NCBI GenBank assembly: GCA_011390345.1 | Contig: JAABSP010000050.1 | Coordinates: 1-36,691 of the forward strand | Reading direction: 5' to 3' | DNA length: 36,691 bases | DNA from: Desulfobacteraceae bacterium | GTDB taxonomy: Bacteria > Desulfobacterota > Desulfobacteria > Desulfobacterales > JAABSP01 | In this document: positions 15,481 to 31,859 of the stretch, in pieces | How the letters are laid out: the number at the start of each line of letters is the position of its first letter | Numbering within the stretch: position 1 is the stretch's first letter | The notes under the pieces: generated by a model | The model's database searches: none | What the model saw: the letters and a program-made list of their open reading frames with translations, nothing else | Told to the model about the DNA's origin: nothing | Translations under genes and position numbers: made by a program

Positions 15481-15557
<77 letters not shown>

Positions 15558-15651: not shown

Positions 15652-17214
15652 CTACTGTTTTCCCAGCTCTCTCTGCGGGAACATGGTGATTCCCGGAGCC
15701 GCCTGGTTTCGCTCCTTCCGCTCTCCGGGCGTCAGATAGATGGAGGTGAAGCGCTGGCTCATCCCATGAAGGGAAGATCCCAAAGGATTGGGACGGTAAT
15801 CGGAAGGAAATCTCAATGCCTCCTGATGGTCCCGCTGGGACAGCCGATTGCGGATATAGGCCTCCCGATCGGAGATGGCTTTATCCACATCCGTTCCCGT
15901 CTCCCTTTGCCTTTCGGATCGAGTTCCCCGCGCAGGTTGTCTTGGCCCCTCTCCACCCGGCGCTGGCGAACGCTTCAAGCGCTGCAGACGGTTTTGGATA
16001 TACGCTTCTCTGGAGGCAATGACTCTTTCAGCAGCAGCTTTCCCTGCCCCATCAGCACTCTCTCGGATCCCTTCTCTGCCGGGCCCGGTTCCGGCAGACG
16101 CCATCTCTGGAGATTCTCTTCCGGTTTCCCTTCTAACCCTTGTTCCCGGCGTGGTAACGCCCCTTTCTCCGATCCCTTCTCTGCCGGGTCCGGTTCCGGC
16201 AGACGCCATCTCTGGAGACTCTCTTCCGGTTTCCCTTCTAGCCGTTGCTCCCGGCGTGGTAACGCCCCTTTCTCCGATCCCTTCTCTGCCGGGCCCGGTT
16301 CCGGCAGACGCCATCTCTGGAGACTCTCTTCCGGTTTCCCTTCTAGCCGTTGCTCCCGGCGTGGTAACGCCCCTTTCTCGGGTACCTTCGGTTTCTGCTC
16401 CGGCCCGGGTCTCCCTTGAAGGACGATCTGAGGGTGCAGCCTGTGCATCTGTTCCCCTTTCTCGATCCGCGTCTCGGGCCGGCCTCTGCCCCGGAGCCCG
16501 TTCACGAAGATCCCGCATACGATCTCCCGGAGAAGTCTCTCCTTCGGGCCCGGGCAGAGCGGCTGCCAGATCTCCCACCGGTCTCCCGGATGGCTCGGCC
16601 TCTTCTCTTCCGGAGGCTGTTTCCGGTCTGCTGAAGGGCTCTTGCATCTCCGCCGCCTGCCCCGTCCCGGTTCCTGCGGTCCCGGTCCTACCTCGGGCGG
16701 TCCGGGCTGCTGTGAGATCCTCGACCTGAGAGGGGCTAAGCCCCAAAACAGGAGCTGCGGCCGCTACAGCCGACTCCAGCCGGTCCAACCGGCCGATCAG
16801 ATTCTCCAAGGTATGATACCCCTCATCCAGACGGGCCAGCCGTTCATCAATGCGGTCCATCACTGCCATGCGCCCCTCCATTCGATTCAGACGCGCATTG
16901 AAAGAGAGAAGATCTCCCGGATCCGGGGCTTCACCCTCTGTAGGTCTGACCACTGTCACCTGATTCTTATGTGCCCGGGCAAGGTCCTCCTGCATTTTGT
17001 CGATCTTCTTGACAAGAACGGTCTTCGGAGGAACCGGGGGCCGGCCCTGGGGCATATTCGTGTAGAGAATGATAAGCAGCACCGTCAGTGCAACCAACCA
17101 GATCCCAAGCAACAGGCGCGGGAAAATCCCTTTCTTTTTCCCAGACCTGCCCCCAGAGTTCCCCTGTGGATTCCCGCCTCCGCTGTCTGTAAATGCCCCC
17201 TTTTTGCGTTTCAT
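15652..17214 (-). CDS. uncharacterised single-pass membrane coiled-coil protein with tandem repeats
   Basis: A 520-residue protein I do not recognise. It has a basic, glycine-rich cytoplasmic N-terminus (1-30), one membrane helix (about 31-51), predicted coiled-coil segments at about 65-85 and 102-152 (RMEGRMAVMDRIDERLARLD has regular hydrophobic spacing), then a long Arg/Glu/Gly/Pro-rich disordered region. Residues 280-384 are three 35-residue repeats containing ERGVTTPGATARRETG and SPEMASAGTGPGRE. The C-terminus holds two copies of (S/D)REAYI(Q/R)NRL, at 401-410 and 449-458, then a Pro/Phe-containing tail. The start is set by AGGAGGT: an ATG at 17220 is one base from it, while the ATG at 17214 has normal spacing. 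Type II topology would place the repeats in the periplasm. An envelope-spanning tether or scaffold is conceivable, but this is inference. Confidence 0.85.
   Translation of the reverse strand: MKRKKGAFTDSGGGNPQGNSGGRSGKKKGIFPRLLLGIWLVALTVLLIILYTNMPQGRPPVPPKTVLVKKIDKMQEDLARAHKNQVTVVRPTEGEAPDPGDLLSFNARLNRMEGRMAVMDRIDERLARLDEGYHTLENLIGRLDRLESAVAAAAPVLGLSPSQVEDLTAARTARGRTGTAGTGTGQAAEMQEPFSRPETASGREEAEPSGRPVGDLAAALPGPEGETSPGDRMRDLRERAPGQRPARDADRERGTDAQAAPSDRPSRETRAGAETEGTRERGVTTPGATARRETGRESPEMASAGTGPGREGIGERGVTTPGATARRETGRESPEMASAGTGPGREGIGERGVTTPGTRVRRETGRESPEMASAGTGPGREGIRESADGAGKAAAERVIASREAYIQNRLQRLKRSPAPGGEGPRQPARGTRSERQRETGTDVDKAISDREAYIRNRLSQRDHQEALRFPSDYRPNPLGSSLHGMSQRFTSIYLTPGERKERNQAAPGITMFPQRELGKQ
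16063..16377 (-). repeat. three tandem 105-bp in-frame repeats
   Basis: Copies lie at 16273-16377, 16168-16272 and 16063-16167 and encode three 35-residue units. The first two differ at a single visible base. The third differs at a handful of positions, mostly in the segment for the ATARR part. The near-identity points to recent duplication by slippage or unequal recombination, and the unit is a multiple of three, so copy-number change keeps the frame. Confidence 0.95.
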
Positions 17215-17369
17215 CGACATACCTCCTGGATGAGCCGCTGTTTTATCAACGGCCCCTGCCGGATAATCGTTTCGGAATAGCCTCTACTGAACATAAATCA
17301 ACAACGCCATAAATATCAAGGGAAATTCTCCTCTTGTGCTTCATCGGAAAGAAATGATAAAAATAATCT

Positions 17370-18413
17370 ATGAAGTCAATGGAAAAAGAAGCTGCCCTTC
17401 TTGCCCTTGAAAAAGAGCCCGAAAACCTGAAATGGCTCCGGGACCAACTCCTTTTGACGACAAAAGAATATGATCTTTGTTTTTCCCCCGGCTTCGGGAC
17501 AGAGCCGGAGATCGGGGGAAAGCAGATCAGCCCGGAAAAGATCATCATCGAATCGGAAAATCTGCTCCGCCGGCTGATGGAAAAGAGCAGGAGAAAGGCC
17601 GAAACCTTCCCTGCAGAAGCCCTCTGGAGACTGCCCAACCGTTATCCGTGGACTTTTTCCGGAGGTTCGGGATCGCTGGAAACGCAATTGCGCGAGGAGA
17701 CACGGGTCATCCGGAGGACATGGAAATGGCTCCACCGCATCTCCGACCGATTTCGGCTGTTGATCATCCCCAATGAGACCACTCCCACCGACTATCTCAT
17801 CGGGACGCTTCCAAAATGGTGCGCGCTGGCCGATGAAGGGAGAGATGATGCTCGAGCACTGCTGCTGAGGGGGGTTAAAATCGCCTCATCAGAACACCGG
17901 GTTCCCCTCGAGGAGACCCCCGAGGGCAGGACCCTTTCACAGGCCATGAAGAAAGCTTTTGACTGCCGACGTGTGCCGCTGCTGATCGATTTCTCCCGGC
18001 GCCGTTTTCCGAGGGCATTCCTTCGGGTCTGGCGGTTTGCCCGGAACATGGGATGGGGGATCAACCCCATTGAAAAGGTACAGGGAAGAGCGGGAAGCCG
18101 GGCCCCGGGGGCAAAATCCCCACGAGGGCTTCCGCCTCTTCCCGGAGCGCCGACGCTGCTGCTTCTGGACCCCTGGCCTATCTCCGACCCGAAGATTATT
18201 TCAGGGCTCAGGCCCGATATTCGCCCCCGGTTCTGCGGAATCCCGGAGACCAAACCCTGGCAGGATGACCGGATCGGTGCGCGGCGGGAGATGGAGATGG
18301 ATGAAAACGGAATCTATCGCTTTCAGAAAGAGCCCTGGGTCGTGCCAACGCTTTCCGGTTGGATACGCGCGGATCTTCTCTTCAGAAATTTACTCCGCAG
18401 TTTTCTTCTCTGA
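17370..18413 (+). CDS. hypothetical protein, 347 residues
   Basis: A long plus-strand frame of 347 residues with no family I recognise. It begins MKSMEKEAALLALEKEPENL, is rich in Arg, Trp and Leu, and looks soluble, with no signal peptide or membrane helix. The N-terminal half appears helical; the C-terminal third has Pro/Gly-rich linkers and ends in basic and hydrophobic residues (LLFRNLLRSFLL). A second ATG three codons in is an alternative start; no strong ribosome binding site precedes either. It is transcribed away from the coiled-coil gene across a 149-bp spacer and converges on the PP2C gene with only 8 bp between stops. Codon use and length favour a real gene over a chance frame, but no function can be offered. 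Confidence 0.65.
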   Translation: MKSMEKEAALLALEKEPENLKWLRDQLLLTTKEYDLCFSPGFGTEPEIGGKQISPEKIIIESENLLRRLMEKSRRKAETFPAEALWRLPNRYPWTFSGGSGSLETQLREETRVIRRTWKWLHRISDRFRLLIIPNETTPTDYLIGTLPKWCALADEGRDDARALLLRGVKIASSEHRVPLEETPEGRTLSQAMKKAFDCRRVPLLIDFSRRRFPRAFLRVWRFARNMGWGINPIEKVQGRAGSRAPGAKSPRGLPPLPGAPTLLLLDPWPISDPKIISGLRPDIRPRFCGIPETKPWQDDRIGARREMEMDENGIYRFQKEPWVVPTLSGWIRADLLFRNLLRSFLL

Positions 18414-29198: not shown

Positions 29199-31859
29199 TC
29201 ACCTCTCATCATCTTCCTCCCCCGCGTCTTCATCCGCGTCTTCCCCGGCGTCTTCATCAGGTCTCTCTTCGGATTCCTCCGGCAGTCTATCGGAAATACC
29301 GATCTCTCCCTCCTCGCCAGCCATCTCCTCTTCGGAAATACCGATCTCTCCCTCCTCGCCAGCCATCTCCTCTTCGGAAATACCGATCTCCCCCTCCTCG
29401 CCGGCCATATCCTCTTCGGAAACCTCCTCCTCCTTTTCCACCAGCCGCGCCGCGCCGGTCAGCCGCTCATTCGGATCGAGATCCATCAGCTTCACCCCCT
29501 GAGTATTGCGGCTGATCACCGACATGCTCTCCACCGGAATCCGGATGATCTTTCCGATGTCGGTCATGAGCATGAGATCGTCATCCTCTTCGACCAGAAG
29601 AATGGCCACCACATTGCCGTTACGCGCACTCGTCTTGATGGTGATGACGCCCTTGCCCCCCCGCTTCCGCAACGGATATTCGTCAATGGAGGTTCGCTTG
29701 CCGTAGCCGCGCTCGGTCGCGGCAAAAAGGGTCTGGCCGTGGCTCAGGACCTGCATCCCCACCAGGTAGTCGTCCGGGTCCAGACTCATCCCCCGAACCC
29801 CCTGGGTGGCCCGTGCCGCCGACCGGACATCCGACTCCAGAAACCGGATCGACTTGCCTTTTGCCGACCCCAAAAAGACATTCATGGTCCCGTCCGTGAC
29901 CCGGGCCGCGATCAGCTCATCCTCCGGCAGCAGATTGAGCGCGATGATCCCCCCGGTCCGGGGCCGGCTGTAGGCCATCACGTCGGTCTTCTTCACCAAT
30001 CCGTTCTTCGTGGCCATAAGGATAAAGGAACCAGGCTCGAAATCGGGCACATTGAGCACGGTCGTCAGCCGCTCATCCTTGTCGAACTCCAGCAGGTTGA
30101 CGATGGCCTTGCCCCGGCTGGTCCGGCTCGCCTGGGGGATGTCGTAGACCTTGCACCAGTAAACCCTTCCCTGGTTCGTGAAGAAGAGAAAGGTATGGTG
30201 GGTGGAGGCAACGAAGAGCAGCTCGACAAAATCATCGTCTTTGGTTCCCATCGCGGTCTTTCCCTTGCCGCCCCGCTTCTGGCTCTGGTACAGGGTGATC
30301 GGGTTGCGCTTGATATAGCCGGTGCGGGTGATGGTCACCACCATATCCTCTTCCGCGATCATATCCTCGATGGTCAGAGCCCGGCTCTCCTCGATGATCT
30401 CGGTGCGCCGGTCATCCCCGTACATCTCCTTGATCTCGGTCAGCTCATCCTTGATGATCCCGAGCACTATCCGATCGCTGCCCAGAATCTCCTTGTACCA
30501 GGCGATCTGCTTTAAAATCTCCCGGTACTCCTCCAGGATCTTCTCCTGCTCCAGGCCCGTGAGCCGGTGCAGCCGCATATCTAAAATCGCCTGTGCCTGA
30601 ATCGGGGTGAAGCCGAACCGGTCGATGAGCCCGTCCTTTGCCTCGGCCGGGGTTTTGGATGCCCGGATCAGGGCCACCACATCGTCGAGATGCTCCAGCG
30701 CGATCTTCAAGCCCTCCAGAATATGGGCCCGGGCCTCGGCCTTATCCAGATCATACCGGGTTCGCCGGATCACGATCTCCTTGCGATGGCGGATGAAGTG
30801 GTCCAGCAGCTCCTTGAAGGAGAAGAGCCGGGGCTGGTTGTTCAGCACCGCGAGAAAATTGATCCCGAAGCTCGTCTCCAACTGGGTCTGTTTGTAGAGC
30901 TGGTTGCTCACAACTTCTGCGAACTGATCTTTTTTCAGCGCGATCGCGATTCGCATCCCTTTTCTGTCCGACTCGTCCCGGACATACCGGATGCCCTCGA
31001 TATGCTTCTCCTTCATGAGCTGCGCGATCTTCTCGATGAGCCGGGCCTTGTTCACCTGGTAGGGGAGTTCATAGACCGCGATAGTCTCGGTGCCGTTATT
31101 CTTGTCCTGCTCCACCTCCACCCGGGCCCGGATCCGGATGATCCCCCTTCCGGTCCGGTATGCGTCGATGATCCCGATCTTGCCGTGGATGATCCCGGCC
31201 GTGGGAAAATCGGGGCCAGGCACGATCTCGATCAGCTCCTCCCAGGTAATTTGAGGATTGTCGATGAGCGCGATGCAGGCATCGACCACCTCCGAGAGAT
31301 TGTGGGGCGGAATGTTGGTAGCCATGCCGACTGCGATCCCCGATGATCCATTGATCAAAAGCGACGGCAGCTTCGCGGGCAGCACCGAGGGCTCGGACAG
31401 GGACTCGTCATAGTTGGGCGTGAAATCGACCGTCTCCTTTTCCAGATCCAAGAGCATCTCGTGGGCCATCTTCGACATCCTCACCTCGGTATAACGCATT
31501 GCGGCCGGGGGGTCCCCGTCCACGGAGCCGAAGTTGCCCTGCCCATCCACCATCGGGTAGCGCAGGGAGAAGCTCTGGGCCATCCGGACGATGGTATCAT
31601 AGACCGCGGAATCGCCGTGGGGATGGTATTTACCGATCACATCCCCCACCACCCGGGCCGATTTCTTGTACGGCTTGTTCCAGTCGTTCCGCAGCTCGTG
31701 CATGGCAAATAGCACCCGCCGATGCACAGGTTTGAGGCCGTCTCTCACATCCGGCAGTGCGCGCCCGATGATCACGCTCATGGCATAGTCGAGGTAGGAG
31801 CGCTTCATCTCGCTTTCGATGCTGATCTCGGGCAGTCTATCTGTTTCGATTGCGTCCAT
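29199..31859 (-). CDS. gyrA: DNA gyrase subunit A with acidic repeat tail
   Basis: The breakage-reunion subunit of gyrase, 886 residues. The catalytic tyrosine is Tyr123 in [10 protein letters not shown]. The quinolone-resistance region has the wild-type Ser84 and Asp88 (PHGDSAVYD). The GyrA box QKRGGKG in the C-terminal pinwheel shows it is gyrase rather than topoisomerase IV. After residue 806 an 80-residue, strongly acidic tail follows: three 14-residue units (E-E-(D/E)[11 protein letters not shown]; residues 815-856), then an Asp/Glu/Ala-rich end. Acidic GyrA tails are known to modulate DNA wrapping in other bacteria; this one is unusually long and repetitive. Partner gyrB is not in the window. 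Confidence 0.98.
29291..29416 (-). repeat. three tandem 42-bp in-frame repeats at the gyrA 3' end
   Basis: Copies at 29291-29332, 29333-29374 and 29375-29416. The first two look identical and the third has three visible substitutions. A looser GCGTCTTC(A/C)TC-type repetition continues at 29224-29262. All keep frame and encode acidic residues. Confidence 0.95.

What the first reader, a model, noticed from the sequence alone, without database searches (positions are those of the whole stretch)
16063..16377. Three near-identical 105-bp repeats inside that protein
Two copies differ by one base, so the array expanded very recently. The unit keeps the frame, making copy number, and hence stalk length, likely to vary between strains or even within a culture.
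Basis: seen in the sequence. Interest (0 to 1): 0.5.

Follow-up and report, generated by a model that had tools for sequence, protein, structure and literature searches.

The report
Repeats in a membrane protein's linker
Three near-identical 105-base repeats lengthen a probably floppy linker in an unnamed envelope protein of a Desulfobacteraceae-like bacterium; the related species examined have different repeats in their versions of the protein, so this looks like ordinary repeat growth in a stretch where sequence and length are loosely constrained.

Summary
Three head-to-tail 105-bp copies lie at 16063-16377, in frame in a minus-strand gene (15652-17220, 522 aa). Two copies differ by one silent base and encode identical 35-aa units; the third differs at 5-6 bases. 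The protein has one predicted transmembrane helix, a coiled-coil-like helix, a roughly 213-residue linker predicted to be disordered (the array is inside it), two short helices sharing a REAYI motif, and a C-terminal tail. All 3 other family genomes held encode a homologue with a conserved N-terminus; the tail is conserved in the 2 that are complete. Linkers do not align, and each carries its own in-frame array with a different unit (78, 15, 12 bp). A more distant homologue in the same place beside ileS has a LysM domain, so the family probably derives from transmembrane-coiled-coil-LysM proteins and lost LysM. Best reading: ordinary repeat birth and turnover in a tolerant disordered linker. 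The gyrA tails of the same four genomes carry differing arrays in 3 of 4, which argues against a device special to this gene. Strain-level copy-number variation could not be tested: one genome, no same-genus relative held, no reads.

The parts
15652..17220 (-). Host gene, 522 aa; no Pfam match above its cut-off, no NCBIfam match
   Evidence: homologues in 3 of 3 other same-family genomes held
17059..17124 (-). Predicted transmembrane helix (aa 33-54) after a K/R-rich N-terminus (net +7), so N-in/C-out by the positive-inside rule
   Evidence: aligned in 4 of 4 family members. Topology is inferred
16756..16920 (-). Predicted long helix, coiled-coil-like (aa 101-155)
   Evidence: block mean pLDDT 63-80
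16057..16695 (-). Predicted disordered linker (aa 176-388), R/G/E/P/A/T-rich
   Evidence: block mean pLDDT 32-42; 92% disorder-promoting residues over aa 165-395; no consistent alignment among homologues
16273..16377 (-). Repeat copy R1 (aa 282-316)
16168..16272 (-). Repeat copy R2 (aa 317-351), 1 silent difference from R1
16063..16167 (-). Repeat copy R3 (aa 352-386), 5-6 differences from the others
15970..16056 (-). Predicted helix 1 with REAYI motif (aa 389-417)
   Evidence: block mean pLDDT 74-93 over 391-420
15817..15894 (-). Predicted helix 2 with REAYI motif (aa 443-468), a diverged second copy; the two complete homologues have one REAYI motif each
   Evidence: block mean pLDDT 68-91 over 441-470
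15664..15774 (-). C-terminal tail, SLHxxxxRF ... APGxTxFPxRxL (aa 483-519), conserved in the two complete homologues
15481..15557 (+). tRNA-Pro(GGG), neighbour beyond the 3' end of the gene

Best explanation
The array is an in-frame coding minisatellite in the disordered periplasmic linker of a single-pass inner-membrane protein. The protein is probably anchored in the inner membrane, spaced by a coiled coil, and reaches through the linker to a partner held by the C-terminal helices and tail (inferred). The linker is selected for being open, flexible and about long enough, not for its sequence, so duplications whose length is a multiple of three survive. Here a 35-codon unit was duplicated at least twice, the last time recently (or the copies were homogenised), by replication slippage or unequal recombination (inferred). 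Sister lineages grew other units in their own linkers. Shown: the array, the frame, conserved ends, non-aligning linkers with a different array in each homologue. Predicted: helices and disorder. Inferred: cell location, tether role, mutational mechanism.
For: Array and frame. Predicted helices 33-54 and 101-155, then low-confidence coil across the array, then two helices of good confidence; the G003 homologue gives the same plan with one C-terminal helix. N-terminus aligned in 4 of 4 family members, tail in the 3 complete ones. 5 of 5 proteins compared (window, G001, G002, G003, and the more distant G062) carry a TRF array inside this gene, units 105, 78, 12, 15 and 15 bp, all multiples of three: 5 arrays in 5,538 bp against 8 in the other 76,694 bp of the same records (binomial p 0.001; leaving the window out, 4 arrays in 3,969 bp against 5 in 41,572 bp, p 0.005). 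The gyrA C-terminal tails carry differing arrays in 3 of the 4 family genomes, as expected if disordered stretches in this lineage generally tolerate repeat growth. PMC7230257 (passages seen, including from its abstract; [quoted passage not shown]
Against: The enrichment test was made after the array was known, on few sequences, and compares a disordered gene with mostly structured neighbours, so it does not show that this gene is special. Arrays in three of the five are modest (TRF scores 62, 66, 90), and weak arrays are not rare: 26 TRF rows of period 12 or more with score at least 50 in a 255,672-bp sample of the same genome, though only one above 75. In G062 the array lies, by alignment, between the transmembrane helix and the coiled coil, not after it. 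The LysM proteins of other families were not scanned for arrays. The structure models are poor overall (mean pLDDT 51 and 53; 4 sequences each) and low pLDDT is only a proxy for disorder. No partner, localisation or copy-number data exist here.
Confidence: 0.75

Rival explanations
1. Length-tuning device: copy number changes often within the species and adjusts how far the C-terminal binding part reaches across the periplasm, with selection acting on length.
For: Near-identical copies with 85 bp of exact homology between neighbours; lengths of 522, 406 and 328 aa in the complete family members; an array in all 5 proteins compared. Middle-domain length also varies widely in TonB (40-245 residues) and TolA (110-335) (PMC12204202, passages seen).
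Against: No variation within the species could be looked for. The gyrA tails, which are not spacers between two anchors, behave the same way in 3 of 4 genomes, so no special role is needed.
Confidence: 0.12
2. The repeat unit itself is a binding module present in several copies (avidity).
For: Protein-identical R1 and R2 and a conserved core in R3; the REAYI helix downstream is also duplicated.
Against: The unit is predicted disordered, is not seen in the homologues' linkers, and the R1/R3 differences are mostly amino-acid changes (4 of 5).
Confidence: 0.06
3. Assembly error: the copy number is wrong (collapsed or falsely duplicated).
For: Fragmented assembly of 199 contigs; a further copy identical to R1 or R2 could be invisible to a short-read assembler.
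Against: The copies carry distinguishing differences and neighbours share at most 85 bp exactly, which larger assembly k-mers or paired reads can span. The frame is kept.
Confidence: 0.07

Closest known systems
In-frame coding minisatellites (VNTRs) in disordered protein regions (PMC7230257: passages seen)
   Same: Head-to-tail, frame-keeping, nearly identical units in a region rich in disorder-promoting residues.
   Different: Polymorphism, which is part of the VNTR idea, is not shown here.
Transmembrane-coiled-coil-LysM proteins of the same order (for example G062 at L011 865-1899, G088 at L016 1045-1749)
   Same: N-terminal transmembrane helix and coiled coil; the window protein's relatives in G001 and G003 lie in the same place beside ileS as the G062 protein.
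   Different: No LysM match in the window protein or the two other complete family members; instead a longer linker, REAYI helix or helices and a tail. The window genome also encodes a separate short protein of the LysM kind (L031 1492-2085).
TonB and TolA (periplasm-spanning proteins with a variable middle domain; PMC12204202, passages seen)
   Same: One transmembrane helix, a long middle region of variable length and composition, and a conserved C-terminal part.
   Different: No TonB/TolA C-terminal domain by Pfam; the coiled coil comes before the linker; no tie to ExbBD/TolQR was sought.

Membership tests
In-frame coding minisatellite / VNTR | Head-to-tail copies of a unit of tens to about a hundred bp with high identity | tested here: met
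   period 105, 3.0 copies, 96% matches
In-frame coding minisatellite / VNTR | Unit length a multiple of three, open frame through the array | tested here: met
In-frame coding minisatellite / VNTR | Copy number differs between strains | not testable with these tools
   one genome; no same-genus relative among the 4 family genomes held; no reads
Transmembrane-coiled-coil-LysM protein | LysM domain (PF01476) | tested here: not met
   absent from P0001 at E<=1 and from the G001 and G003 proteins at E<=0.1; the C-terminal half of the G002 protein is off its contig, so it says nothing; present in G062 at 7.2e-13
Transmembrane-coiled-coil-LysM protein | N-terminal transmembrane helix and coiled coil homologous to the family | tested here: met
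   BLASTP to the G062 protein, single comparison: E 1e-6 (P0001) and 4e-7 (P0003); hhalign 96% probability
Transmembrane-coiled-coil-LysM protein | Same genomic place (next to ileS) | tested here: inconclusive
   met in G001, G003 and G062; not in the window genome, where ileS is on another contig with a different upstream gene
TonB/TolA | TonB/TolA C-terminal domain | tested here: not met
   no such Pfam match for P0001 at E<=1
TonB/TolA | Partner motor ExbBD/TolQR | not tested
   no search made

The most novel reading that the evidence does not exclude
A small Desulfobacterales-type family replaced the peptidoglycan-binding LysM domain of an old inner-membrane tether with a new helix-and-tail anchor, and its linker is a hypermutable, repeat-built spacer whose length varies within populations and is selected to match the periplasm.
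Probability: 0.1. Interest if true: 0.5.

Novelty: new member of a known kind. Interest (0 to 1): 0.2.

Why it matters
It gives a small, clean example of a protein conserved at its two ends whose disordered middle is rebuilt with different tandem repeats in each lineage, next to a relative that still has the presumed older domain (LysM). If copy number proved to vary within the species, it would be a natural length series for asking how envelope tethers tolerate or use linker length.

Tried and rejected
Named families: Pfam gave only sub-threshold matches for P0001 (BatA 0.022, iPGM_N 0.23), NCBIfam none at E<=1, solved structures none at E<=1, PHROGs none for P0001 and nothing better than 0.0014 (coiled-coil region) for P0003 and P0004, plasmid records no DNA match. 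PADLOC, phage and E. coli collections were not searched.

First genome-contig scan with the window protein alone: 35 pattern hits, no relative by tblastn. The second, with a family alignment, gave three named records from 47 pattern hits.

Degenerate LysM: MAFFT placed the REAYI segment against the G062 LysM region, but hhalign and BLASTP give no significant match there, and AlphaFold2 shows lone helices. I do not claim a LysM relic.

Shared tail with G062: the score was reached by 4, 51 and 310 of 2000 shuffles for P0001, P0003 and P0004; suggestive for one, weak or absent for the others. Kept as a hint only.

Weak hits elsewhere in the order: besides the four family genomes and G062, 52 of 291 genomes and 84 of 389 had a match, with most matches listed over the coiled-coil part of the profile. 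I read seven of these proteins (L005, L007, L012, L014, L016, L041, L042): all seven end in what looks like LysM, confirmed by Pfam for the two tested (L016, L041). I did not count them as family members and did not scan them for arrays.

Literature: searches listed no paper on this protein or these records; listings were capped (60: 20 of 77; 68: 20 of 31; 84: 10 of 93), and there is no bioRxiv. Opened: PMC8824477 (passages; nothing on repeat linkers), PMC6821194 (abstract and section list only), PMC7230257 and PMC12204202 (passages).

Full report
Observation. Window 16063-16377 holds three head-to-tail copies of a 105-bp unit (TRF 16061-16379, 3.0 copies, 96% matches, score 596). They lie in a minus-strand open frame of 522 aa, 15652-17220. 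In reading order R1 (16273-16377) and R2 (16168-16272) differ by one silent base and encode identical 35-aa units; R3 (16063-16167) differs at 5 bases from R1 and 6 from R2, four of the five R1/R3 changes altering the amino acid. Identity at lag 105 is 96.7% over 210 nt; 200 codon shuffles, each searched over in-frame lags from 30 to 300, reached at most 43.8%. The longest exact stretch shared by neighbouring copies is 85 bp. The whole gene has one match in its genome.

How unusual in this genome. In 17 other stretches of the same assembly (255,672 bp, a convenience sample) TRF listed 26 rows of period 12 or more with score at least 50; one scored 288 (57 bp x 2.9) and the other 25 scored 75 or less. 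Among 258 open frames of at least 120 aa in 319,498 bp (a set that includes the window, the ileS stretch and four LysM loci, with small overlaps between some), 7 had a 90-residue stretch with at least 82% disorder-promoting residues, and 3 of these 7 carried arrays: the protein here, GyrA, and the one with the 57-bp array. Some of the other four may be wrong-strand frames; I did not check.

Protein anatomy. AlphaFold2 on a four-row alignment (mean pLDDT 50.7, pTM 0.20, so only local features are used) gives helices at 33-54 (transmembrane by composition), 69-87, 101-155, 163-175, 389-417 and 443-468; from 176 to 388 the model is coil with block mean pLDDT 32-42. The array (aa 282-386) ends just before the first C-terminal helix. 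The two C-terminal helices share I-x-x-REAYI-x-NRL. The tail, conserved in the complete homologues (SLHxxxxRF ... APGxTxFPxRxL), is not confidently folded. The K/R-rich N-terminus (net charge +7 over 33 residues) suggests N-in, so linker and tail would be periplasmic (inference).

Relatives. All three other held genomes of the same family have a homologue: G003 (328 aa), G001 (406 aa; same genus as G003) and G002 (another genus; cut by its contig end). Their contigs have the same lengths as public records JAABTD010000049.1, JAABTM010000227.1 and JAABTE010000077.1, titled Desulfobacteraceae bacterium MAGs. The N-terminus aligns in all four; the REAYI segment and the tail align in the three complete ones; the linkers do not. 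The G003 protein is predicted with the same plan and one C-terminal helix (mean pLDDT 53.3).

Each relative has its own array in this gene: G001 78 bp (with 39-bp substructure, TRF 289), G003 15 bp (90), G002 12 bp (66), and the distant G062 homologue 15 bp (62). All unit lengths are multiples of three. Over the five records compared, 5 arrays fall in 5,538 bp of this gene and 8 in the other 76,694 bp (p 0.001); without the window 4 in 3,969 and 5 in 41,572 (p 0.005). This test is post hoc and does not control for disorder.

Origin. In G003 and G001 the gene sits between a PAC2-family gene and ileS (PAC2 and ileS identified by Pfam in G003, and by likeness of sequence in G001). In G062, of another family of the order, the place beside ileS (again by likeness) holds a protein with a homologous N-terminus and coiled coil (BLASTP E 1e-6 and 4e-7 in single comparisons) that carries a LysM domain (7.2e-13) and then a tail. 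An S33-type hydrolase gene lies just upstream in G062 and one gene further upstream, beyond PAC2, in G003 and G002 (Pfam only for G003); I did not see it in the G001 contig. Seven weaker relatives that I read from other families of the order all look like transmembrane-coiled-coil-LysM proteins, two of them checked by Pfam. The simplest history is that the family lost LysM and kept or gained the helix and tail. Against a tidy story: the tail likeness between G062 and the family is weak (4, 51 and 310 of 2000 shuffles), only one bridging genome was found, and the window genome also encodes a separate short LysM protein of the same general plan elsewhere (L031 1492-2085), so paralogues are in play. 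In the window genome the gene is not beside ileS, which lies on another contig with a different upstream gene; it sits next to tRNA-Pro(GGG), so it appears to have moved.

Mechanism. I take the protein to be an inner-membrane-anchored envelope tether: anchor, coiled-coil spacer, flexible linker, C-terminal binding part. Partner and localisation are not known. Repeats arise by slippage or unequal recombination; those that keep the frame are tolerated because the linker is disordered. The gyrA genes of the same four genomes point the same way: their C-terminal tails carry arrays of differing units in 3 of 4 (G000 42 bp, G001 24/8 bp, G002 24 bp; G003 none). A general tolerance of repeat growth in disordered tails therefore explains the finding without a special length-tuning role, though it does not exclude one.

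What could not be tested. Copy number between strains, within a culture, or in reads. The claim of recent expansion rests on one silent difference between R1 and R2; homogenisation of older copies would look the same.

Noticed in passing
window 29290-29422 (and 29206-29264): The acidic C-terminal tail of GyrA carries an in-frame 42-bp x 3.2 array ([14 protein letters not shown] units) and a shorter 24-bp one; relatives G001 and G002 carry different arrays in the same tail, G003 none.
   Followed up: partly
L077 1485-1567 (G001 gyrA tail): A period-8 tract (7.9 copies) near the 3' end of gyrA; 8 is not a multiple of three, so a single-unit change would alter the frame of the tail.
   Followed up: no
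L063 2701-4506 (same genome, C40): A 601-aa frame with a 57-bp x 2.9 in-frame array near its start and two long, closely similar halves; it resembles Ysc84/DUF500 proteins (name recalled, not tested).
   Followed up: no
window 15817-16056: The REAYI helix next to the array is itself duplicated and diverged in this species, while the two complete homologues have one.
   Followed up: partly
window 17370-18413: Plus-strand 347-aa frame upstream of the gene with no Pfam match at E<=0.001.
   Followed up: no
L075 5213-5277, 6966-7089, 7910-8015: The short G002 contig carries three further arrays outside this gene, so that genome may be rich in repeats.
   Followed up: no
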